DNA from: Actinomycetota bacterium
GTDB taxonomy: Bacteria > Actinomycetota > Thermoleophilia > BMS3ABIN01
DNA length: 64,000 nt
Reading direction: 5' to 3'
Assembly (NCBI GenBank): GCA_016235065.1
Contig: JACRMB010000010.1
Span: 196,281-260,280 of the forward strand
Below the pieces are notes generated by a model that was not told the DNA's origin, made no database searches, and saw only the letters and a list, made by a program, of their open reading frames with translations. A program made the translations under genes and the position numbers. Shown here one piece after another: positions 34,382 to 45,273 of this stretch; position 1 is the stretch's first letter, and every line of letters begins with the position of its first letter.

Positions 34382-35242
34382 CTAAAGTTCGTCCGGCAGC
34401 TCCCGCAGTTCCGCCAGCGAGAAAACCGGCCCGTCGGTGCAGACGTATTTCGGACCCAGGTTGCAGCGGCCACAGAGGCCGATGCCGCACTTCATCCGGC
34501 GCTCGAGCGTAGTATAGATCTGTTCTTCCCTGAAGCCCGTTTTATCCAAACTCTGTAGCGCAAATTTGATCATTATCGGCGGGCCGCAGGTGACCGCCAC
34601 GGCGTTCTCCGGCGACGGCGCCTTCTCTTCGACGACCGAGGGCACCAGACCGACGCAGCCGTCCCAGCCGGCGCAGGCGGTGTCGATGGTGGCTGCGAAA
34701 TCCAGGTCGGCGCGAGATTCCCAGTCGCGGCGGTCTTCTGCGTAACAGAGATCGCCGGGGGTGCGGGCGCCGTAGACCAGCGTCATGTCTCCATAATCTT
34801 CCCGGTTGTCAAGCAGGTAGAAAAGCAGTGACCTGAGCGGCGCCATGCCGATGCCGCCACCGACGAGCACGATGTTCTTCCCCTTCCAGTCGTCCGTAGG
34901 AAAGGCACAACCCATGGGGGCGCGGACGGCTACCCGGTCGCCGGCCGAGAGTTCGTGGATGGCGCTGGTGACCACGCCGGTCTTCATCACCGAGAAGTCG
35001 AAGCTGCCCCGCCGTGACGGCGCCGAGGAGAGAGCGAAGGTGGACTCGCCGGCACCCATGATACTGAGCTGGCCGATCTGTCCCGGCAGGAAGCTGAAAG
35101 ATTCAGCCAAGGCGGGATCGTCGAAGGCGATCCGGAAAGTCCTGATGTTGGTGGTCTCGGTGATGACCTCGAGCACCGTGGCCGGTTCGGGCCGCAGCGG
35201 CTCGGTTGCCTTCATGCCTGCCTGTGGTATGGTCGTGCTCAT
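34382..35242 (-). CDS. flxA: FlxA-like FAD/NAD-binding oxidoreductase subunit
   Basis: The 286-residue protein has an FAD-binding ferredoxin-reductase domain (residues 18-110, TFALSSAPSRRGSFDFSV), an NAD(P)-binding domain (VLVGGGIGMAPLRSLLFYLL) and a C-terminal iron-sulfur motif C-x4-C-x2-C-x8-C in MKCGIGLCGRCNLGPKYVC, as in PyrK and the gamma subunit of sulfhydrogenases. In FlxABCD-HdrABC complexes this subunit oxidises NADH and passes electrons to the iron-sulfur subunits. Related alternatives are anaerobic sulfite reductase B or HydG. The neighbouring hdrCBA and mvhD-like genes decide for the Flx assignment. Confidence 0.85.
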   Translation of the reverse strand: MSTTIPQAGMKATEPLRPEPATVLEVITETTNIRTFRIAFDDPALAESFSFLPGQIGQLSIMGAGESTFALSSAPSRRGSFDFSVMKTGVVTSAIHELSAGDRVAVRAPMGCAFPTDDWKGKNIVLVGGGIGMAPLRSLLFYLLDNREDYGDMTLVYGARTPGDLCYAEDRRDWESRADLDFAATIDTACAGWDGCVGLVPSVVEEKAPSPENAVAVTCGPPIMIKFALQSLDKTGFREEQIYTTLERRMKCGIGLCGRCNLGPKYVCTDGPVFSLAELRELPDEL

Positions 35243-35306: not shown

Positions 35307-36410
35307 TCATTCTTTCCGGGCAGCTTTCAGCGCATCCCTGAGGACGTCGCGGATATCAAGAGCCGCGGGGCAGCCCCTGATACAGCGGCCGCAGCCGGTA
35401 CAGAGGATCTCACCCTGGTTCTCGGGATAGTAGCTGAACTTGTGATTGATGCGGTTACGGTAACGATGAGCCAGAGTCGGCCGGGGATTGTGTCCCGATG
35501 TTTCCTGGGTGTAGAGCGCGAACATGCAGGCGTCCCAGCTGCGAAGGCGCTCGCCCTCGCGGTCGCCCTGCATCTCATCATGGATGTTGAAACAGTGGCA
35601 GGTCGGGCAGCCATAAGTGCAGAAACCACAGGAGACGCAGCGCTCGGAGACTCTCTCCCAGAAATCCAGGTCATCGAACAGCCCGGGGAGGATCTCCTGC
35701 AGCCGTTCCAGACCTTCGATCACAGCGGTCTCGGCCAGCGGCGGCGGCGCCAGTTCCGATTCCTCAAAGAAAGGTTCGCTCAGAAGTTCCCCACCCTTGC
35801 CGGTCACCCCTTCGGCCAGGAAACCACCGTCGACCGGATAGAGGATAAGGTCAGAACCGGCCTTCTCTGAAGCGCCGTTCTCAAAGGACGAGCAGAAACA
35901 GGCGTCGTCACAGGTGGTGCAGGCCAGGGTGATGACGGTGAGCCCCTCCCGCCGCGCGCTGTACTGGGGATCGTTGTAGCCTTCTCCTCCTGGATTATTG
36001 AAAAGTGCGTCGAGAACCTGGATGGATTTGGCGTCGCAGGCACGGACGCCGAAAAGGACTGTCGATGGGGCAGGCTCAGCCGGTTTGATGACGATCTGTT
36101 CGCCGCTGGTTGCAGGAGCCTGATCTGAGTCAGAGGCCGCAACCGCGGTACCTGAAGCTCCGAGACCACCACTGAACGGGCTGCCGCCAAACGCATATGT
36201 GTAACCGAACAGCTTCTCCGTGCGTGGCAGCACCACGTCTTTGGCGGACAGTGATGAATAATGTTCAAGATCTATGGGATCGCCGGGGCGCCAGCGCTCG
36301 AACATGACGGTGCCGCCGGAGCCGGTCAGCTCCCGGGGCGCCCAGACCGTCGATCGTGCCGAAAGCGCTTCGAGGAATCCCGGTATCTTCTCGCTGGATA
36401 TGAACTTCAT
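35307..36410 (-). CDS. Iron-sulfur dicluster subunit of the Flx-Hdr complex (FlxB-like)
   Basis: The 367-residue protein resembles the AsrA/HydB family of two-[4Fe-4S] electron carriers. A first half with VLFGVRACDAKSIQVLDALF and cysteines in TLACTTCDDACFCSSF is followed by two ferredoxin motifs, CVSCGFCTYGCPTCHC and CTGCGRCIRGCP. It would relay electrons from the NADH-oxidising FlxA toward HdrA. By mirrored gene order it corresponds to FlxB, but FlxB and FlxC are similar, so the letter is tentative. A Ser/Ala/Gly-rich loop at about residues 75-100 is an insertion. It is separated from flxA by 64 nt. Confidence 0.8.
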   Translation of the reverse strand: MKFISSEKIPGFLEALSARSTVWAPRELTGSGGTVMFERWRPGDPIDLEHYSSLSAKDVVLPRTEKLFGYTYAFGGSPFSGGLGASGTAVAASDSDQAPATSGEQIVIKPAEPAPSTVLFGVRACDAKSIQVLDALFNNPGGEGYNDPQYSARREGLTVITLACTTCDDACFCSSFENGASEKAGSDLILYPVDGGFLAEGVTGKGGELLSEPFFEESELAPPPLAETAVIEGLERLQEILPGLFDDLDFWERVSERCVSCGFCTYGCPTCHCFNIHDEMQGDREGERLRSWDACMFALYTQETSGHNPRPTLAHRYRNRINHKFSYYPENQGEILCTGCGRCIRGCPAALDIRDVLRDALKAARKE

Positions 36411-36416
36411 TGTTTT

Positions 36417-37334
36417 TTATTCACCATCCCAACTGTCGCCCTTGATGTCAAAAGTCAGCAGCGGCGGCTTCGCCTCCGGATCGACTCCGGCGCGGTAGTC
36501 GAACATCTCCTCGATGGCGCGGTTCTGTTCCTCCATCAGCAGCATCAACGGGATGCCCACGGGGCAGGCGCGCTCACATTCCCCACAGGCAGTGCAGCGG
36601 CCAGCGAGATGGTTGACGCGGATCAGCTGCATCATCTCCGCCTCGGCAGTGTTTATGCCGCCACCGGTCCAGTGGGGATCGGTTGTCTGCATGATACAGA
36701 CATCCCGGCAATAACACATGGGGCAGGCCTCCCGGCAGGCATGGCAGCGGATACAGCGGGCATATTGCTCGCGCCAGAAAGCGCGCCGTTCCCCGACGCT
36801 CATCGCCTGGAAATCTTCGCGCAGCTGTTGGCGGGCGTTCGCTGGTTTGCTGCCGGACGGAACTGGCTTTCCGGCCGGCGTAGCCGGCTGCCGATCCTCA
36901 CAGTCGAGGCACTTCGCCTGGACGAATGCCTCCCTCTCCACTGGTTCGCCATTCACGCGCAACTCGCTGCCATCGTCTTCTATCAAGGCGCCATAACCAT
37001 AGCGGCGCCAGATCGCCTTGACGTCGAGCGTATCAGTGCAGCTGACCTCTATGACCCTGACCTGATCCCCGTCGACCTCGCGCTCGGCGATCAGCTCGAC
37101 GATGCTCCTGGCGTCACAGGCCTTGGCGACGATGCCAACAGCCCGGCCCTTCAACCGCGGCAGATGTACGGACAGGTTATGGACACAGGTGGAATCGAAG
37201 ATGGCGACCTCGGCTTCCTCAGCCGTATGGAAACGCTCTGGCGCGGCCACACCGCCGGCGCCGGTAGCGGACCATCCGAGCACCAGGCCGGTCTCGGCCA
37301 GGACTTTCTGGATCGTGGAAACCAGTTCGCTCAT
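36417..37334 (-). CDS. Iron-sulfur subunit of the Flx-Hdr complex (FlxC-like)
   Basis: The 305-residue protein shares the early GIVAKACDARSIVELIAE motif with its neighbour FlxB, showing a common origin of the N-terminal halves. A short CLDCED sequence leads to two [4Fe-4S] motifs, CIRCHACREACPMCYC and CTACGECERACPVGIP. The role is electron transfer within the Flx module. The ATG overlaps the flxD stop by 4 nt, implying coupled synthesis. A 20-residue Pro/Ala-rich linker (about 150-170) separates the halves. Confidence 0.8.
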   Translation of the reverse strand: MSELVSTIQKVLAETGLVLGWSATGAGGVAAPERFHTAEEAEVAIFDSTCVHNLSVHLPRLKGRAVGIVAKACDARSIVELIAEREVDGDQVRVIEVSCTDTLDVKAIWRRYGYGALIEDDGSELRVNGEPVEREAFVQAKCLDCEDRQPATPAGKPVPSGSKPANARQQLREDFQAMSVGERRAFWREQYARCIRCHACREACPMCYCRDVCIMQTTDPHWTGGGINTAEAEMMQLIRVNHLAGRCTACGECERACPVGIPLMLLMEEQNRAIEEMFDYRAGVDPEAKPPLLTFDIKGDSWDGE

Positions 37335-37801
37335 GAGGTTGTCTTCCCGGTGGCATCGGTCATCGCCGTTTGCTCGGCTTTTGCAAGTGCGTTAGCCGGC
37401 ACTTCCGCCCCGATCTTCCCCAGCGCCTCGATCCGCCTCGTGAAATCCGAGACCACCCCGGCCCAGCGTGAACCCTCCGACGCACTTACCCAGGTGTAAT
37501 GGAACCGTCCGGGGTCGATGCCGAACGCCGGTAGCATCCGCTGAAGCAGTTCCAGCCGCCGCCGGGCGTGATAGTTGCCCACATTGTAGTGGCAGTCGCC
37601 CGGATGACAGCCGCTGACCAGCACGCCGTCGGCGCCTTCCATAAATGCTTTCAGGATCAGCAGCGGATTCACCCGGCCGGTGCAGGGCAGCCTGATGACC
37701 CGCAGGTCGCCTGGCTGCTTCATCCGCGCCGTACCCGCCATGTCGGCGCCGGCGTAGGAACACCAGTTGCAGAGGAAGCCTATGAGTTTCAGGTCAGACA
37801 A
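37331..37801 (-). CDS. flxD: MvhD/FlxD-type electron-transfer subunit
   Basis: The 156-residue protein is a MvhD-family [2Fe-2S] protein: FLCNWCSYAGADMAGTARM at the N terminus, RLPCTGRVNPLLILKAFMEGADGV and GCHPGDCHYNVGNYHARRR carry the conserved cysteines. MvhD docks electron-input modules onto HdrA, so its place directly after hdrA is functionally telling. The start is a TTG with AGGTGACAA upstream. The last 30 residues (Ala/Thr/Lys-rich) go beyond the usual family end. Confidence 0.92.
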   Translation of the reverse strand: MSDLKLIGFLCNWCSYAGADMAGTARMKQPGDLRVIRLPCTGRVNPLLILKAFMEGADGVLVSGCHPGDCHYNVGNYHARRRLELLQRMLPAFGIDPGRFHYTWVSASEGSRWAGVVSDFTRRIEALGKIGAEVPANALAKAEQTAMTDATGKTTS

Positions 37802-37804
37802 TTG

Positions 37805-39763
37805 TCACCTCAACAACTCCATGGTCTCGGCGATAAGCTGGCCGTCGGTGTAGCCTTTCAGGGAAATGACCGCCGGCGGGCAGGCGACGTTGCAGACGCC
37901 GCAGCCCTGGCAGAGTGAGTCAATGACGTTTGCAACCTCGCGGCCGTCACGCAGCTCCACGGCCTCGATGGCCCCATACGGGCAGACGTCGCGGCACTTG
38001 AAGCAGCCGGTGCAGCGCATCTGGTTCACCGCCGCGACCATGGGGCTGGTCTCCAGTTCGCCCCGCGAAAGCAGGCCGATGACTTTGGCCGCGGAAGCGC
38101 TCGCCTGGGCGACCGTATCGGGGATATCCTTCGGTCCCTGGCAGGCTCCCGCCAGGAAGACACCACCGGTCGTAGTCTCCACCGGCCGCAGTTTGGGATG
38201 GCTCTCAGAGAAAAACTCGTACTGGTCATAAGATATGTTCAGCTTGCGGGCAAGTTCGCCAGCGCCTTCCGCGGCTGCAAAGCCAGTCGCCAGCACCACT
38301 AGGTCGGCATCAATCTCGACCTGCTCGGCAGAAAGCGTGTCAGTTCCCATGACCACCAGGTTGCCGTTGCTCGGATAGATCTTGCCCACTCGGCCGCGCA
38401 AATAGATGGCGCCGAAATCCCGCTGGGCCCGGCGGGTGAATTCCTCATAACCCTTGCCGCCGGCCCGTATGTCTATATAGAAGACGTAAGATTGGGAATC
38501 AGGTATATGCTCCTTCGTCAGGATCGCCTGCTTGGCGATGTACATGCAGCCGACGCTGCAGCACAGCGGCCGGCCTACCGACTCGTCGCGGGAGCCGACG
38601 CAGGATATGAACACCACGTTCTTGGGCTCCTTGCCATCTGAGGGCCGCTGCACATGGCCGCCGTTGGGGCCTGACGCCGAGAGCATCCGCTCGTATTGCA
38701 GCGCGGTGACCACGTCGGGATACTGGCCACCACCGTAATCAGGGTAGGACTCGCGCCAATCAAAGAGTTCGTAACCGGTCGCGACAACGATAGCCCCGAA
38801 TTTTTCCGTTTCAATCCTGTCTTCCTGCTCGTAATCGATAGCGTCCGCGGGGCAGACTTTCTTGCAGACGCTGCACTTGCCCTTGATGAACAGACGGCAG
38901 TGCTCCTTGCGCAGGGCTGCGACCAGCGGCACCGCCTGGGGGAACGGGATGGAGATCGCCTTCGACTGGCCGACGCCGGCGTTGAACTCATCCGGCGCCT
39001 TGCCCGGGCACTTCTCCTGGCAGATCATGCAGCCGGTGCACTTCTCCGCGTCGACACAGGTAGCCTTCCTACGGATGTCCACGTCGAAGTTGCCGATGTA
39101 GCCGCGCACCTGCTCGACCTCCGAGCTGACCATCAGTTCGATGTTCTCATGCTGGGCAGCCTCGACCATCCGCGGCGTCAGAATGCACGAAGAGCAGTCG
39201 AGAGTGGGGAAAGTCTTGTCGAGCCGCGCCATGTTGCCACCGATGCTGGGTCCCCGCTCCACCAGCGTCACCGGAAGCCCGGCGTCAGCGATATCGAGAG
39301 CCGCCTGGATTCCGGCGACGCCGCCGCCGACGACCAGTACCCGCTTGGTCACCGGCACAGTCGTCGAATGCAGCGGCACCTGCCTACGCACCCGGGCAAC
39401 ACCCTTCTGCATCAGGTCGATCGCCTTGTCAGTAGCCTCATCGATGTCGGAGTGGATCCAGGAGCAGTGCTCGCGGATATTCACCATCTCCATCATGTAG
39501 GCGTTAAGGCCGGCGCGACCGACCGTCCGCCGGAAAGTATTCTCGTGCATGCGCGGCGAGCAGGAGGCGATGACCACCCTGGTCAGGCCCTTCTTCTGGA
39601 TGGCGTCGATGACGGCGCGCTGCCCTGGGTCGGAACAGGTGTACTGGATGGACTCCGCGTGCAGCACGTCGCGCATGGACAGCGCCGCGTCGACGACCTT
39701 GCCGGTAGACACAGTGGCGGCTATGTTGGTGCCGCATTCGCAGACGAAGACGCCGATGCGCAT
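37805..39763 (-). CDS. hdrA: Heterodisulfide reductase subunit A (flavin electron-bifurcating type)
   Basis: HdrA carries FAD and several [4Fe-4S] clusters and is the proposed bifurcation site in Hdr complexes. The 652-residue protein has the N-terminal domain FVCECGTNIA with CSPRMHE, the FAD motif VLVVGGGVAGIQAALDIADAG, LDCSSCILTPRM, internal ferredoxin motifs CTGCMICQEKCP and CSVCKKVCP, and a C-terminal pair CTGCFKCRDVCP and CQGCGVCNVACPP. These are the features of full-length HdrA. No selenocysteine codon is apparent. Gene order hdrC-hdrB-hdrA-flxD-flxC-flxB-flxA is the reverse of the floxABCD-hdrABC order described in sulfate reducers. Confidence 0.94.
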   Translation of the reverse strand: MRIGVFVCECGTNIAATVSTGKVVDAALSMRDVLHAESIQYTCSDPGQRAVIDAIQKKGLTRVVIASCSPRMHENTFRRTVGRAGLNAYMMEMVNIREHCSWIHSDIDEATDKAIDLMQKGVARVRRQVPLHSTTVPVTKRVLVVGGGVAGIQAALDIADAGLPVTLVERGPSIGGNMARLDKTFPTLDCSSCILTPRMVEAAQHENIELMVSSEVEQVRGYIGNFDVDIRRKATCVDAEKCTGCMICQEKCPGKAPDEFNAGVGQSKAISIPFPQAVPLVAALRKEHCRLFIKGKCSVCKKVCPADAIDYEQEDRIETEKFGAIVVATGYELFDWRESYPDYGGGQYPDVVTALQYERMLSASGPNGGHVQRPSDGKEPKNVVFISCVGSRDESVGRPLCCSVGCMYIAKQAILTKEHIPDSQSYVFYIDIRAGGKGYEEFTRRAQRDFGAIYLRGRVGKIYPSNGNLVVMGTDTLSAEQVEIDADLVVLATGFAAAEGAGELARKLNISYDQYEFFSESHPKLRPVETTTGGVFLAGACQGPKDIPDTVAQASASAAKVIGLLSRGELETSPMVAAVNQMRCTGCFKCRDVCPYGAIEAVELRDGREVANVIDSLCQGCGVCNVACPPAVISLKGYTDGQLIAETMELLR

Positions 39764-39766
39764 GGG

Positions 39767-40738
39767 TTATGCCTCCCCTGCCGCGCAGACTGCCTGGCTT
39801 GCGCCGCCCCGTCCGCTGGCATCCGCTGCGCGGGCGGTCCGCTCCGCAGCGCCCTGCTCGATCTTTGCCAGCAATTTGCGGGCGCTGACTATATGCGAGT
39901 CGATGCCAAGGTCGTCGGCGTTCAGACCCAGCGCCAGCCCCAGCACCTGCGAGAAATACAGGATAGGCATCTCGATGTTGGTTCCGAATGCTTTGTTGAT
40001 CTGCCCCTGGCGCAGGTCCAGGTTCTGATGGCATAGCGGGCAGGCGGTGACGATGGCGTCGAATCCGAGACCGTCGGCCACATCGATGATGCGGCGGCTG
40101 GCCCGGAGCACAATCTCCTTGTGGGCCAGGCCCATGTAGGAACCGCAGCACTCGCTCTTGAAAGGAAAATGATCGGCGTTGGCACCTGTAGCCATCAGCA
40201 GCGGCTTCATGCTGACCGGATTACGGGCATTGTCAAAGTTCATTATCTTGGCGGGACGCGTCAGCAGGCAGCCGTAATAGGTAGCGAAGTTCAGCCCGGC
40301 GAGCCGGCCCTGGGCTCGCTTCGCCAGCGCTTCGGGAGTGACCTCCCGGTCGAACAGCTCTACCAGGTTCAGTATCTCGATCTCATAGCGCACCGGCTCG
40401 CGCAAGACTCTTGTTGCCTGCTCGCGTATCTCTTCGCTGCCAGATAACTCGTGCTGGGCGTTTTTATGACGGTTGTAGCATCCGGCGCAGGGAGCCACCA
40501 TGGCTTCGTGCCCGTAGCCGGCAATATGAAGGTTGCGTGCCGGCAGCAGCACGCCCAGGTTGCCTCCCCAGTGATGGGGTGCCGGCGAAGCGCCGCAACA
40601 GTTCCAGTCCGGGATCTCGTCGAGACCGATGCCGAGCTCCTTCGCCACCAGGCGGAACGAAGCGTCGTATTCGCCGGCGGAGCTGGTAAGTGAACATCCG
40701 GGGAAGTAGGAATAGCGGGAAGAAGAGGCATCGCTCAT
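39767..40738 (-). CDS. hdrB: Heterodisulfide reductase subunit B
   Basis: HdrB holds the non-cubane [4Fe-4S] clusters that reduce disulfide in methanogens; the natural substrate in bacteria is unknown. Both CCG domains are complete: YFPGCSL...NCCGASPAPHH...APCAGCYNRHK and ATYYGCLLTRP...SECCGSYMG...TACPLCHQN. I prefer the ATG at 40738, one base after the hdrC stop, because the conserved sequence starts soon after; an ATG at 40756 with GGGAG upstream is also possible. The C terminus is an Ala/Arg-rich tail. It is followed by hdrA after only 3 nt. Confidence 0.93.
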   Translation of the reverse strand: MSDASSSRYSYFPGCSLTSSAGEYDASFRLVAKELGIGLDEIPDWNCCGASPAPHHWGGNLGVLLPARNLHIAGYGHEAMVAPCAGCYNRHKNAQHELSGSEEIREQATRVLREPVRYEIEILNLVELFDREVTPEALAKRAQGRLAGLNFATYYGCLLTRPAKIMNFDNARNPVSMKPLLMATGANADHFPFKSECCGSYMGLAHKEIVLRASRRIIDVADGLGFDAIVTACPLCHQNLDLRQGQINKAFGTNIEMPILYFSQVLGLALGLNADDLGIDSHIVSARKLLAKIEQGAAERTARAADASGRGGASQAVCAAGEA

Positions 40739-40739
40739 A

Positions 40740-41303
40740 TTACTTATCCCCGCCATTTATCTCCCGGAAGATCCGATGGACTTCTTGCCGGTTCTTGATC
40801 CGCGGCGGCACGATATGGATTTTCTTCCTGCGGAGGATGAGCGGCACCAGCGAGAGGTCGTTGAAAGGCCGGAAACTGCGGAAGTTTATCCAGGTGAGCA
40901 GGCGCGCCTCGTGCAGCCGGCCGTGGCGCCGCACGTTCTTGAGAAAGGCGAGCCGGAAAAGACGGATCTCTTTTTCATCACCCTCGATGCCCCGCTCGTC
41001 GGCGATCATCTTGGCATGTTCGATGACGTTGGCGACGTCGATGTTCATGGGGCAGCGGGTGGAGCAGGTCATGCAGTCGTAACAGATCTGGGCTGTGCGG
41101 GAGTTCAGCACCTCGTCGACCTGGCCCAGCTGCAGCATCCGCATGATCCGATGAGGCGGATAATCGAAGGCGAAGGCACCGGTGCAGGTGGAAGTGCAGC
41201 GGCCGCACTGGTAGCAGGCCGAGACGCGCTCACCAGAGCGGCGCTCGATATCGGCGACTACATCAGCTCCGCCTGGCACGGTGCTGGATACACGGATAGC
41301 CAA
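40740..41303 (-). CDS. hdrC: Heterodisulfide reductase subunit C
   Basis: HdrC is a small two-[4Fe-4S] protein passing electrons between HdrA and HdrB. Motifs are CYQCGRCTSTC and CYDCMTCSTRCP. I choose the TTG at 41303 because GGGGAAGGA lies 6 nt upstream and the product begins MAIRVSSTVPGGA; an open frame to 41333 adds ten unlikely residues. Unlike membrane-bound HdrE-linked forms there is no transmembrane segment, so the complex is cytoplasmic. It is the first gene of the hdr-flx operon and lies 118 nt downstream of two Rex-type operators. Confidence 0.92.
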   Translation of the reverse strand: MAIRVSSTVPGGADVVADIERRSGERVSACYQCGRCTSTCTGAFAFDYPPHRIMRMLQLGQVDEVLNSRTAQICYDCMTCSTRCPMNIDVANVIEHAKMIADERGIEGDEKEIRLFRLAFLKNVRRHGRLHEARLLTWINFRSFRPFNDLSLVPLILRRKKIHIVPPRIKNRQEVHRIFREINGGDK

Positions 41304-41420
41304 GATGAATCCTTCCCCACCACAAGAGTGCAAAAAACCCGCCGGCGCCCGGTTCCAGGTCAGCTATTCCCTGACATCAGCTTCGATGGGAGCATTTTCC
41401 TGAGGAACAAGCCAGCGAGC

Positions 41421-41438
41421 TTGTGAAACAATTAACAA
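41421..41438 (-). promoter_or_regulatory. Rex-type operator 1 upstream of hdrC
   Basis: TTGTGAAACAATTAACAA has the 7-4-7 architecture of the Rex operator (TTGTKAA-N4-TTMACAA), with both half-sites complete. Rex is the NADH/NAD+-sensing repressor of Gram-positive bacteria and dissociates when NADH is high. The site is just downstream of the predicted -10 box, in the position of a blocking operator. Confidence 0.75.
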
Positions 41439-41441
41439 TAT

Positions 41442-41459
41442 TTGTGAAAAGTTTAACAG
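41442..41459 (-). promoter_or_regulatory. Rex-type operator 2 upstream of hdrC
   Basis: TTGTGAAAAGTTTAACAG fits the same 7-4-7 pattern with one departure at the last base. Its centre is 21 bp from that of operator 1, two helical turns, so two Rex dimers would sit on the same DNA face. It covers the predicted -10 hexamer. Confidence 0.72.
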
Positions 41460-41478
41460 CGTGGGTTGTGGAAGTCAA
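41450..41478 (-). promoter_or_regulatory. Predicted sigma-A promoter of the hdr-flx operon
   Basis: On the coding strand TTGACT (41473-41478) and TAAACT (41450-41455) are separated by exactly 17 nt: 5 of 6 and 4 of 6 matches to consensus. The -10 box is inside Rex operator 2 and the expected start of transcription falls in or next to operator 1. Confidence 0.65.
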
Positions 41479-41556: not shown

Positions 41557-41691
41557 TCACTGTTCCCAGTGCCTGCTCAGCCAGTCTTTGTCGTTCCAGG
41601 CAAAGGCATTGGTCCAGTATGCCTGGAGGGGAGGGTTATCTGCGTAGTTTCTATCGTTTAGCGTGCTATCGAAGGCTTGATTCGAGGGCAT
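41557..41691 (-). pseudogene. C-terminal fragment of a Vps62-like secreted protein
   Basis: A 44-codon frame encodes NPPLQAYWTNAFAWND followed by KDWLSRHWEQ and a stop. Fifty nucleotides (41588-41637) are identical to 43214-43263 in the intact secreted-protein gene 1.6 kb away, where they encode the same NPPLQAYWTNAFAWND. Outside that block the sequences differ. The fragment has no signal peptide and overlaps the end of the small membrane-protein gene, so it is most likely a remnant of a duplicated copy that ended soon after this motif. The identical stretch suggests recent duplication or gene conversion. Confidence 0.6.
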
Positions 41692-42007
41692 GTGCAAACA
41701 ATTCCGCTAACAAAAAAGCATACGCAATTATGAACAAAAAGGACATGACCAAGACCCAGACAAAATTGCCAACTCGCCTTTCAGGAAATAAATGTCTAAG
41801 TGTGAACCAATGGACCACGCCCTGAAATATCACAAATGGGATAATTATGAATAATAAATCTTTATCCCAACGATTTGTTAAAAAAATGTCGCTTGCGACT
41901 GGTGATCGAAGTAATAGGCAGTAAATTAATAAAGTTACTGCAAGACCGAGTCCCCAAACAATATTTAACAATACCCGCTTCTTTAATATCGAATCACTAG
42001 TATTTAT
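41666..42007 (-). CDS. Small AT-rich membrane protein
   Basis: The open frame encodes about 100-113 residues with three hydrophobic segments (LNIVWGLGLAVTLLIYCLLL, DLLFIIIPFVIFQGVVHWFTL and VWVLVMSFLFIIAYAFLLAEL). I recognise no family. An in-frame TTG at 41971 is the first standard start, but a perfect GGAGGT lies 4 nt before an ATA at 42007, giving the better N terminus M-NTSDSILKKR before the first helix; I extend to that ATA. Either an ATA start is used or the normal ATG was lost. Codon use is far more AT-rich than in the neighbours, which suggests transfer or relaxed selection. The region 42008-42090 up to the upstream gene is AT-rich and empty. Confidence 0.5.
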   Translation of the reverse strand: MNTSDSILKKRVLLNIVWGLGLAVTLLIYCLLLRSPVASDIFLTNRWDKDLLFIIIPFVIFQGVVHWFTLRHLFPERRVGNFVWVLVMSFLFIIAYAFLLAELFAHALESSLR

Positions 42008-42090: not shown

Positions 42091-45000
42091 TCACGGCATC
42101 GACCCTGGGAACCAGTACGTACTACCAGCATCGTCGTTGCAGGTAGCATAGGTAGTCGTAGTAAAACTTCCTACATTTGTCGGCACGAAGTACTTGAGTG
42201 TTACGGTTCTGCTCGATCCCGGATTTATATCACCCACCGCTGAAGGAAGTTGAGTAACGGAGTAGACTGTACTTGGGTTACAGAAAGAGGCCTGTACGGT
42301 TGATTCCAGGGCAAAGCCTGTCCCTGTGTTGCTCATCCTGTAATCTATCGAGAGTTGCCTGTTCTGATAGTCGGTCCAGTTAGCCCAATATGTCCTGAGT
42401 TTCGACCATGAAAGACTGGGGATGGTCGTTGTGCCAATGGCAACATTCGATAGCGGCGAGTATAGAGCTGACTCATCCATCGTTTTCAAGGCAAAGTTAT
42501 ACGTGGTGCCTGGGCTAAGGCCAATCACTGTTATGGATTGTGAACTGCCAGCCTGAAGTGGCGTTGGAAGACCGCTAACCGGAATAGCATCTTTCCAGTA
42601 CTGGTCGGTTATGGCAGCGGTTGAATAGCGCAGATCGTATGCCGTGGCGGTACCCGCATTGCCATCATCGCCAGGGGCGATAAAGGTCAAAGTGGCGCTA
42701 CCGGCGGAGGTTGCTGTCACCCCGAGATCAGATATTTGTGCCGGTGGAGTGAAGTCAACGATGTTGGTTGTCGTAGTATCTGGCGACTTCTGGATTGCAT
42801 TCGCTCCATCCCCATCTGGATCTATACTCATGGTGTAATTCTTATCAGAATCGAGGGTCATTGTGACCTTGGTTGAGGGATTAACCTCTACGGTATTGTA
42901 GTTTAGGGTATCAACGTAGCCCCCTGAGTGATCAGGGGCGGTTACGATGAAACTGGCGGGTCCTGTGCCGTTGCCAGTAGCCTCGAATCTGTAGCCCTGA
43001 TTGATGTCGCTACCGTGGATGATAATGCTTTTCCGGTGAAGATCGGGGTATTCCAGGTACTCCGAGTTGGGTATCTGCTGGTCGATGCTCCCATCAGCAT
43101 TTTTACCCGTATGTCTGCCTTGAGCATCATAGAGGCTGATGTCAACTGGCGAGAGCGCTGTACATTGGGTATCTGTTCCCTGTGCCCGCTCATCCTGGCA
43201 GCCATCACATGTGTTGTCGTTCCAGGCAAAGGCATTGGTCCAGTATGCCTGGAGGGGAGGGTTTGCAGAACCATCGCGCAGACCTGGCAAGTCCTCATGC
43301 AACGGAACTTCTACAACAGCGTTGGTAAACTCGCCCCACTGCCCCATGAAATTAAGCCACTCAAACCCCGAACCAATATCAACCTGGTCGACTTCAGGTA
43401 TAAGCTTGACTTGAGTAGTGATCGCATTGTTATCATCAGAGTTGTTTAAAACGTCGCCGCTGCCGCTGGCATCGTCCCATACTTTAAAGTAGCTGAGATC
43501 AATACCTTGCCCATAAATCGAGTGCTCGGCGTTGGCAGTAAAATAATTGGCATGGGAACCCACGCCTACATATACTACCGGCTGATCTGGCAATGCCTCT
43601 GATTTCTCAACACTGCCGGGGCCTTCCCAGTTTCGCCATTGACCGTAGCCATGCTGGCTGTAGTTGGCCCTATAAGGTTTCAGATTGCCGTCAAGATCGA
43701 TCTGAACTACTTCCCAGTCGCCCTCGTGAAATATTTCCGCATGATCGTTTGCAGCATAGAAAAGCCAGTATTGGATGAACGAGTTCTCATTGCCGCCGGG
43801 TCTGGAAACCACACGGGCATAGATCGTGCGAGGGAATTGACTACCCACCTGATCTCTTCTTGATTGATAGGGCACAGCATAGTTATCATGAACCTGTTCA
43901 TGATTTATTGAACGGGAAGGATTGCCACCACCAGCAGCTATCGAATCACCCTGCAAATCAATATAAAGATCGGGAGTATTTGCGTATTGAGCCAGGGTGG
44001 CCGCTGCCGGCTTAAGAATTGAGAATTCGGGATTATTTCTTTGTCTCAACGTCGAATCGGGCTCGGTAAGAAATTGCTCCACTGGCATGGGCTCGAAGTT
44101 CTCCCCCATGGTCATTCTTAACTCCGGCCGGTGTTTCTCCGCCAGTGTTTTCGCCATCACCGCTTTCGTCCCATAAATATCCAAGTTGCCGTTCCTGTCG
44201 TCCTGCCAGACGATGAATGGCTGGCCTTCGGAATCAATAGTTATTGCCGGCTCCTTCTGATCACCTGCACCCAGACAGATGGGGTATTCCCGAGAAGTCG
44301 CGAGGTCTTTCATATAGATATCGAAGTTACCGTTGCGGCTGTCTTCCCAGACGATCAGATCATGAACCTGCCCTTGTGCGTCACTGTAGCTTGCGACTTC
44401 GGCGTCTCTTTGATCACCGACGCCTCCTGCTACCACACCCTCAGCACATCTAATGTCCGCGTCATCTGAGTCGGGTTCGCCCAGATAGGCGACCAGGTCC
44501 CAGTCGCCGGTTCCTATCTTGCGGTTATAGATGATGAAGCCGCCGCCTGCCCTTGCGATGTCTCGGTTGGTATTCATCTCGCAGCCAGGTCCAGACTTAT
44601 CCACTAAGCCTAGCAGCGTGATGACGTTTGAGCGATAGCTCCCCTGCCAGGACTGCCATTTGGTCCAGATCGGACCGAGGGCGGTTACGTAGGGGTGCGA
44701 GGTGTAAATGTATGAAGAGAAATTCGAATAGGTTCCCGCGTTGAAATCCACATAGTAGATACCACCGGAGCCACTGCTGCCGTAACTGCCATCGTAAAAG
44801 ACGCCCATGCCGTCAGGATTGGCGCTGATGTTGTATCCCGTCGTAGTGGTGACACAGTTGAGTGGTGCCTGACTCCAGGGCTCAACCGAGAGGTCCTGGC
44901 TGCAGAACTTCCGGCCGGTGTCGATTTTCTGATAGATCGCGCGCTTCGATTTGATGTCGAGATTGTTTAAGCGATCGCTCAAGTTATTGGCCAGCAGTTG

Positions 45001-45273
45001 CGAACCGGCATTGCCGGCGAGGTTGATTCCATAAAGATCGGTTCCGGATCTATAAATGACGATGTCACCTTCAGCCGCGGGTATCGACTGCTCGGCGGGT
45101 CCGGTAGCGATCGGGGAAGCGTCCTGCACCAGCCAGTCCTGGGAGGGATCGGCAGCCATCGCGTACTGTTGAGAGCTGTAAACGATGAAGGAACCCCAGA
45201 TGAGGAGGCAAAACAGCAACGCTCGAGTCCACGGCACGTGTCTGTTTTTCCAATAATCCAGAGATGTAGACAA
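42091..45273 (-). CDS. Large secreted protein: beta-propeller, Vps62-like domain, fibronectin type III
   Basis: The 1060-residue protein starts at a TTG after GGGAGG, with a signal sequence or anchor (about residues 14-41, RALLFCLLIWGSFIVYSS). Residues 60-400 look like a TolB-type propeller (IVWEDSRNGNFDIYMKD, IVWQDDRNGNLDIYGTK). Residues about 455-690 resemble the Vps62/DUF946 family (FIQYWLFYAAND, FHEGDWEVVQIDLDG, YSQHGYGQW, PVVYVGVGSHANYF). A fibronectin type III domain follows (about 840-950), then a C-terminal beta domain of about 110 residues. The same Vps62-Fn3-C-terminal order is in the gene at the right edge. The biochemical role is unknown; it is exported and may be a surface or matrix protein. 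A 48-nt element shared with the beta-helix gene is upstream. Confidence 0.8.
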   Translation of the reverse strand: MSTSLDYWKNRHVPWTRALLFCLLIWGSFIVYSSQQYAMAADPSQDWLVQDASPIATGPAEQSIPAAEGDIVIYRSGTDLYGINLAGNAGSQLLANNLSDRLNNLDIKSKRAIYQKIDTGRKFCSQDLSVEPWSQAPLNCVTTTTGYNISANPDGMGVFYDGSYGSSGSGGIYYVDFNAGTYSNFSSYIYTSHPYVTALGPIWTKWQSWQGSYRSNVITLLGLVDKSGPGCEMNTNRDIARAGGGFIIYNRKIGTGDWDLVAYLGEPDSDDADIRCAEGVVAGGVGDQRDAEVASYSDAQGQVHDLIVWEDSRNGNFDIYMKDLATSREYPICLGAGDQKEPAITIDSEGQPFIVWQDDRNGNLDIYGTKAVMAKTLAEKHRPELRMTMGENFEPMPVEQFLTEPDSTLRQRNNPEFSILKPAAATLAQYANTPDLYIDLQGDSIAAGGGNPSRSINHEQVHDNYAVPYQSRRDQVGSQFPRTIYARVVSRPGGNENSFIQYWLFYAANDHAEIFHEGDWEVVQIDLDGNLKPYRANYSQHGYGQWRNWEGPGSVEKSEALPDQPVVYVGVGSHANYFTANAEHSIYGQGIDLSYFKVWDDASGSGDVLNNSDDNNAITTQVKLIPEVDQVDIGSGFEWLNFMGQWGEFTNAVVEVPLHEDLPGLRDGSANPPLQAYWTNAFAWNDNTCDGCQDERAQGTDTQCTALSPVDISLYDAQGRHTGKNADGSIDQQIPNSEYLEYPDLHRKSIIIHGSDINQGYRFEATGNGTGPASFIVTAPDHSGGYVDTLNYNTVEVNPSTKVTMTLDSDKNYTMSIDPDGDGANAIQKSPDTTTTNIVDFTPPAQISDLGVTATSAGSATLTFIAPGDDGNAGTATAYDLRYSTAAITDQYWKDAIPVSGLPTPLQAGSSQSITVIGLSPGTTYNFALKTMDESALYSPLSNVAIGTTTIPSLSWSKLRTYWANWTDYQNRQLSIDYRMSNTGTGFALESTVQASFCNPSTVYSVTQLPSAVGDINPGSSRTVTLKYFVPTNVGSFTTTTYATCNDDAGSTYWFPGSMP

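What the first reader, a model, noticed from the sequence alone, without database searches (positions are those of the whole stretch)
41421..41478. Two tandem Rex-type operators over the promoter of an Hdr-Flx operon
Two 7-4-7 inverted repeats (41421-41438 perfect, 41442-41459 with one deviation), 21 bp centre to centre, cover the -10 box and probable start site of a TTGACT-17-TAAACT promoter leading into hdrCBA-flxDCBA. Rex senses NADH/NAD+, and FlxA is the predicted NADH-binding subunit, so the operon's substrate would control its own expression. The match is seen directly; binding by Rex is an inference from known operators.
Basis: partly seen in the sequence, partly recalled or inferred. 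Interest (0 to 1): 0.75.

Follow-up and report, generated by a model that had tools for sequence, protein, structure and literature searches.

The report
Rex-type operators over Hdr-Flx promoter
A switch-like DNA site of the kind bound by the NADH-sensing repressor Rex sits on the start site of an NADH-using electron-transfer operon in every one of 19 related uncultured actinobacterial genomes, and a conserved RNA stop-signal-like hairpin lies between it and the first gene; binding itself is untested.

Summary
The two 18-bp sites (41421-41438 and 41442-41459, minus-strand operon) are the only matches within one mismatch of the Rex consensus in the 64-kb window, and the genome has two complete rex genes. 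The site sits just 3' of the same TTGACT-17/18-TAxAxT promoter upstream of hdrC in all 19 genomes of the family (7 genera). At exact match it occurs at no other gene in those genomes, with one exception. The second, -10-overlapping site 21 bp upstream is confined to the window's genus; a degraded copy is seen in one neighbouring genus. It is found in 16 of 19 relatives at this locus only; the other three have different hairpin/U-tract sequences there. A related site also precedes the pyruvate:ferredoxin oxidoreductase operon in five genomes. The organism is a Thermoleophilia (Actinomycetota) with dsr genes and DsrC, the probable disulfide partner of Hdr. Rex repression relieved by NADH is the best reading (about 0.72). 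The main rival is a CRP/FNR-family regulator. Binding was not tested. One relative has the site but no detectable rex.

The parts
41421..41438 (-). Primary Rex-type operator, TTGTTAATTGTTTCACAA in operon orientation; starts 11 nt 3' of the -10
   Evidence: ortholog present in 19/19 family genomes
41442..41459 (-). Second Rex-type operator, CTGTTAAACTTTTCACAA, overlapping the -10; 21 bp from the first
   Evidence: conserved at the same 21-bp spacing in the 7 genomes of the genus, degraded in one other genus
41473..41478 (-). -35 hexamer TTGACT
   Evidence: TTGAC[TA] in 19/19 relatives
41450..41455 (-). -10 hexamer TAAACT (17-nt spacer)
   Evidence: TAxAxT-like in relatives
41332..41420 (-). Leader hairpin ending in a U-tract (terminator-like; proposed attenuator): 5' arm 41411-41420, 3' arm 41337-41346, U-tract 41332-41337
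   Evidence: not in Rfam
40740..41303 (-). hdrC (proposed start codon TTG at 41303-41301 after GGGGAAGGA)
   Evidence: start set from relatives' alignment
39767..40756 (-). hdrB (CCG domains)
37805..39763 (-). hdrA (FAD plus 4Fe-4S; HdrA2-like by NCBIfam, below that model's cut-off)
37331..37801 (-). flxD (FlpD/MvhD domain)
36417..37334 (-). flxC (4Fe-4S)
35307..36410 (-). flxB (4Fe-4S dicluster, Fer4_22)
34382..35242 (-). flxA (FAD_binding_6, NAD_binding_1, DHODB Fe-S): predicted NADH-binding subunit

Best explanation
The sites are operators for the redox-sensing repressor Rex, most likely the hemL-linked copy Rex1. At low NADH/NAD+ a Rex dimer bound just downstream of the -10, and in this genus a second dimer two helical turns upstream over the -10 itself, blocks RNA polymerase at the hdrCBA-flxDCBA promoter. 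When NADH rises Rex lets go and the NADH-oxidising Flx-Hdr complex is made, so its substrate induces it. Transcripts then meet a conserved 5' hairpin with a U-tract before hdrC, which I propose acts as a second, attenuation-type checkpoint with an unknown trigger. Shown: sites, promoter, conservation, rex genes, leader. Inferred: binding, direction of control, identity of the Rex copy, attenuation.
For: Only two matches in 64 kb, chance 0.01. Site present in 19/19 family genomes across 7 genera at the same place relative to a conserved promoter, with mean column identity 0.86 in the site against about 0.54 in the flanks. Exact matches in 19 genomes fall only at this promoter bar one (C4:78411); the reversed-pattern control found one site, in G003. 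Two full-length Rex proteins (NCBIfam Rex models above cut-off) keep the Tma Rex DNA-contact residues Q46, R48, S52, G58, R60, G61 and Y64; position 49 is Lys in Rex1 and Arg in Rex2 (residues from PMC8836258). All hdr sites keep the contacted G3/A6 and their complements, and the g5/g6 variants (e.g. TTGAGAAAACTTTCACAA) closely resemble the crystallised T. maritima operator (TTGAGAAATTTATCACAA, PMC8836258). Location over -10/+1 suits a repressor. A second plausible Rex target, por, carries a related site 3' of its -10 in 4 genomes, plus one upstream of the -10 in a fifth.
Against: No binding or expression data. One relative (G007, 90% complete) has the site but no detectable rex. The genome also has a CRP/FNR-type regulator and relatives have TTGTGA-N6-TCACAA sites at multihaem cytochrome operons, only a few letters away from the hdr sites. 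No Rex site was found at the rex genes within the fetched loci of this genome. The sister family's hdrC promoters lack the site although some of those genomes have Rex.
Confidence: 0.72

Rival explanations
1. The sites are operators of a CRP/FNR-family regulator whose half-site TTGTGA-N6-TCACAA overlaps the Rex consensus; here it would act as a repressor because it covers the start site.
For: One CRP/FNR protein over the Pfam cut-off in the genome; TTGTGA-N6-TCACAA sites upstream of multihaem cytochrome operons in relatives; por sites fit this pattern slightly better than the Rex one.
Against: Most hdr sites have TGTTA in the left half instead of TGTGA and keep A7 (17/19) and T12 (19/19), which the Rex consensus asks for and the CRP pattern does not. 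A position over the start region is unusual for CRP/FNR activation (general knowledge). A published study assigned similar TTGTGA-N6-TCACAA sites at multihaem cytochromes to Rex (PMC7306483), so even those may be Rex sites.
Confidence: 0.18
2. The sites are real regulatory elements bound by another, unidentified dimeric regulator.
For: The transcribed half TTCACAA is invariant in 19/19 while the other half drifts, and TTCACAA is often followed by GCTC at both hdr and por, which a symmetric dimer site does not require.
Against: Rex is present in 18/19 genomes and the motif matches published Rex consensus sequences.
Confidence: 0.08
3. Chance or promoter composition: AT-rich promoter DNA happens to look like Rex sites.
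For: One site overlaps the -10 box, where TTAAA-like letters are expected.
Against:: conservation in 19/19 genomes and near-exclusive genomic location.
Confidence: 0.02
4. (About the leader only, not exclusive with the others.) The leader hairpin is only a terminator for read-through from the upstream mqn genes or a 5' mRNA stabiliser, not a regulated attenuator.
For: An mqnC-like gene lies directly upstream in several relatives with the promoter over its end (sequence); loop sequences vary strongly and folding z-scores are modest (-3.1 to +0.3), arguing against a ligand-binding aptamer.
Against: The hairpin starts at the operator, downstream of the promoter, and only about 28 nt separate the U-tract from the hdrC start in the window, so transcripts from this promoter must pass it. 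It is kept in 16/19, and three relatives have other hairpin/U-tract sequences there.
Confidence: 0.35

Closest known systems
Rex operators of Gram-positive bacteria and Thermotogales (TTGTGAANNNNTTCACAA, TTGTTAANNNNTTAACAA)
   Same: Length, 7-4-7 geometry, contacted bases, location over the promoter, NAD(H)-linked target; T. maritima operator closely similar to the g5/g6 variants
   Different: Here the two half-site types are mixed (TTGTTAA / TTCACAA), with the transcribed half invariant; almost a single target per genome at exact stringency
Rex regulation in sulfate reducers (D. vulgaris sat; Rnf and sulfate-reduction genes in D. alaskensis; predicted site at hnd of S. fructosivorans)
   Same: Redox control of anaerobic sulfur-respiring electron transfer genes (PMC11451228, PMC4215793, PMC10084766)
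   Different: Different phylum (Actinomycetota); target is hdr-flx, not sat/rnf/hnd. I found no open paper that assigns a Rex site to hdr-flx, but Ravcheev 2012 and Christensen 2015 were not readable here
FlxABCD-HdrABC of Desulfovibrio vulgaris
   Same: All seven subunits; DsrC with C-terminal CX10C in the same genome
   Different: Gene order hdrCBA-flxDCBA, no adjacent adh noticed in the region read; promoter and leader described here

Membership tests
Rex operator | 18-bp 7-4-7 inverted repeat matching a Rex consensus | tested here: met
   0 and 1 mismatches to TTGTKAANNNNTTMACAA
Rex operator | Located at a promoter so as to block RNA polymerase | tested here: met
   over -10 and start region, promoter conserved in 19/19
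Rex operator | rex gene in the same genome | tested here: met
   two copies; one relative (G007) lacks a detectable rex
Rex operator | Conserved upstream of orthologous genes | tested here: met
   19/19 family genomes; not in sister family
Rex operator | Binding by Rex, released by NADH | not testable with these tools
   Needs gel shift or footprint
Rex operator | Distinct from CRP/FNR-type sites | tested here: inconclusive
   hdr sites fit Rex slightly better, por sites fit the CRP pattern slightly better
FlxABCD-HdrABC | All seven genes adjacent, FlxA with NAD/FAD domains, FlxD with FlpD domain, HdrA with FAD and Fe-S | tested here: met
FlxABCD-HdrABC | DsrC partner with two C-terminal cysteines encoded in the genome | tested here: met
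   L215:8639-8974
Intrinsic-terminator attenuator | GC-rich hairpin followed by U-tract between promoter and first gene | tested here: met
Intrinsic-terminator attenuator | Base pairs kept across sequences, with compensatory changes | tested here: inconclusive
   90% of cells paired, 2 pairs with both-side changes; shuffled controls only partly exceeded
Intrinsic-terminator attenuator | Conditional termination and an antiterminator state | not tested
   No experiment; no alternative fold searched systematically
Known riboswitch or Rfam leader | Match to a curated family | tested here: not met

The most novel reading that the evidence does not exclude
A lineage-specific two-lock control of an electron-bifurcating complex: a nearly dedicated Rex operator at the start site plus a conserved 5' terminator-type attenuator beginning right at the operator, so that NADH sensing by protein and a second signal read by RNA jointly set Flx-Hdr expression in uncultured dsr-bearing Actinomycetota.
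Probability: 0.4. Interest if true: 0.6.

Novelty: new member of a known kind. Interest (0 to 1): 0.48.

Why it matters
Flx-Hdr complexes link NADH, ferredoxin and disulfide (DsrC) pools in anaerobes, but how they are controlled is little known. A site conserved in every member of a family and almost nowhere else gives a clean, testable case that the enzyme's own substrate ratio sets its expression, in organisms that cannot yet be grown. The conserved leader hairpin adds a possible second regulatory layer for which I found no description.

Tried and rejected
Rfam search of the leader and of 16 relatives' loci gave nothing convincing. Rex sites at rex genes: none within 3 mismatches in this genome's two loci, and only weak scattered hits in relatives. 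Rex sites at Hdr loci of Desulfobulbaceae, Armatimonadota, archaea and the sister family: none clearly above chance; the TTGTG in sister-family promoters looks like their own -35 box. Other 1-2 mismatch hits in the genome (for example glyA region C2:96339, C6:21951) were not followed as targets because they lie in coding sequence or showed no counterpart in the family pattern scan. C4:78411 is an exact match 16 bp before a large surface-protein-like ORF; no counterpart was seen in relatives, so it is left as possible chance. A true riboswitch was considered and disfavoured because loop sequences are not conserved.

Full report
What is there. The window lies in a 2.37-Mb, 98.9%-complete genome whose nearest named relatives are Thermoleophilia (Actinomycetota) metagenome assemblies (taxonomy). 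On the minus strand, hdrC, hdrB, hdrA, flxD, flxC, flxB and flxA follow each other. They are the only sites within one mismatch of TTGTKAANNNNTTMACAA in the window; shuffles give 0.01 on average and none of 100 gave two. Neither is a perfect palindrome: the arms differ at one and two positions. The TTGACT-17-TAAACT promoter is confirmed. The start codon of hdrC is probably TTG at 41303, judged from the protein alignment and the ribosome-binding sequence GGGGAAGGA.

Conservation. Searching hdrC in 149 relatives gave 19 close homologues, one in each genome of the same family (seven genera). All 19 have TTGAC[TA], 17-18 nt, a TAxAxT-like -10, then 8-12 nt, then the site. Positions 2, 3, 6 and 12-18 are invariant; the mean column identity is 0.86 in the site against 0.55 and 0.54 in the flanks. 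Exact matches to YTGTKAANNNNTTMACAA in the 19 genomes fall at the hdrC promoter in 14 genomes, with a single extra site (C4:78411 in the window's genome); the reversed pattern found one site, in one genome (G003). The other five genomes have the site with one mismatch. The tandem second site, 21 bp upstream and overlapping the -10, is found in all seven genomes of the window's genus and in degraded form in one other genus. The single site is therefore the probable ancestral state and the duplication recent (inference). Twenty-one base pairs is two helical turns, so two dimers could sit on one face (inference).

Who binds. The genome has two complete Rex proteins. Rex1 is encoded directly after hemL; Rex2 is divergent from dnaK. 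Both match solved Rex structures, best with T. maritima Rex. Tma residues Q46, R48, S52, G58, R60, G61 and Y64 that touch DNA (PMC8836258) are kept in both; K49 is kept in Rex1 and is Arg in Rex2. PF06971 is found in 18 of 19 family genomes. Rex1 is present in the family genomes with a single copy (G006, G010, G011, G015, G018), so Rex1 is the better candidate. G007 has the site but no Rex by two searches; its assembly is about 90% complete. The Tma crystal operator TTGAGAAATTTATCACAA closely resembles the TTGAGAAAACTTTCACAA form seen in relatives. Published consensus sequences TTGTTAANNNNTTAACAA (PMC8457756) and TTGTGAANNNNTTCACAA (PMC5317091) bracket the site seen here.

The main rival. One CRP/FNR-family protein passes the Pfam cut-off. 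Relatives carry TTGTGA-N6-TCACAA sites upstream of multihaem cytochrome operons. The hdr sites are one to three letters from that pattern and zero to two from the Rex pattern. The constant T12, nearly constant A7 and the TGTTA half favour Rex, and the position over the start site favours a repressor, but sequence alone cannot settle it. A study of Calderihabitans assigned such TTGTGA-N6-TCACAA sites, including at multihaem cytochromes, to Rex (PMC7306483).

A second target. The pyruvate:ferredoxin oxidoreductase operon (porC) has TGGTGAGTNATTTCACAA just 3' of a TAGAAT -10 in four genomes (two genera; TTTTT spacer variant in the window's genome) and TTGAGATTTTTTTCACAA upstream of the -10 in a fifth; twelve other genomes lack it. 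At the genome-wide rate of about 16 such sites per 2.37 Mb, finding five in 17 upstream regions of 400 bp is far above chance, though the genomes are related.

The leader. Between operator and hdrC runs an 89-nt hairpin in the window: GCUCGCUGGC pairs with GCCGGCGGGU, followed by a six-U tract. Sixteen of 19 relatives have a recognisable homologue. A covariance model built from them finds it at the hdrC locus of 16 genomes with E at or below 1e-5 and at no other locus with such a score (window hit 41332-41420); the members it was built from match by construction, so the informative part is the absence of other strong hits. In the other three (L027, L028, L032) the leader has different hairpin and U-tract sequences; in L028 and L032 a long stem runs straight into a U-tract, while in L027 the corresponding arms are far apart. 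Pairing is 90% of cells against 25-52% for slid partners, with two pairs changed on both sides, but shuffles that keep column make-up are only partly exceeded, and folding z-scores are modest. Loops are not conserved, so a small-molecule aptamer is unlikely. The hairpin lies inside the transcript and leaves no room for another promoter in the window, so I propose attenuation; the trigger is unknown. The por leader also has a terminator-like hairpin before its ribosome-binding site in most relatives (sequences), while loose scanning finds few such cases at other genes in the window (5 of 51).

Physiology. A dsr gene cluster including dsrA, dsrB, dsrK, dsrO and a DsrC with C-terminal CX10C lies about 7 kb left of the window. 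Dsr-bearing Thermoleophilia are known (PMC10591310). In D. vulgaris DsrC interacts with FlxABCD-HdrABC (title of a reference in PMC11451228) and the complex is described as coupling NADH to ferredoxin and DsrC (PMC10084766). So induction by NADH through Rex would raise the capacity to spend NADH when it accumulates (inference).

Verdict. It is a new member of a known kind in a new lineage, made more interesting by its near-exclusive target and by the leader.

Noticed in passing
41332-41420 (minus) and homologues in L019-L036: Conserved terminator-like leader hairpin between operator and hdrC, absent from Rfam and with no other strong hit in 19 genomes
   Followed up: partly
L198, L201, L204, L213, L205 (upstream of porC): Rex/CRP-like site at the pyruvate:ferredoxin oxidoreductase promoter in five genomes, and a terminator-like hairpin just before the por ribosome-binding site in most
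   Followed up: partly
L176-L180: TTGTGA-N6-TCACAA sites upstream of multihaem (doubled CXXCH) cytochrome operons in several relatives
   Followed up: partly
L215 (contig C10:180281-196281, just left of the window): dsr gene cluster with DsrC (CX10C); a second DsrC-like protein without either cysteine at L216:4586-4975
   Followed up: partly
42091-45273 and 41666-41971 (minus): Large 1060-aa secreted-looking ORF and a small membrane ORF sit between mqnC and hdrC here, whereas in several relatives the hdr promoter overlaps the 3' end of an mqnC-like gene
   Followed up: no
L028, L032 leaders: Strong hairpin AUAGCUCAGGACCUUAUCC...GGAUAAUxUCCUGGGCUAUU followed by U-tract in place of the usual leader hairpin
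   Followed up: no
L037, L038, L046, L047 upstream of hdrC (sister family): Repeated CCTGCAAAA element upstream of the -10 in sister-family hdrC promoters
   Followed up: no
G000:C4:78411-78428 (L003:1501-1518): The only other exact match to the Y-form Rex pattern in the genome, 16 bp before a surface-protein-like ORF
   Followed up: partly
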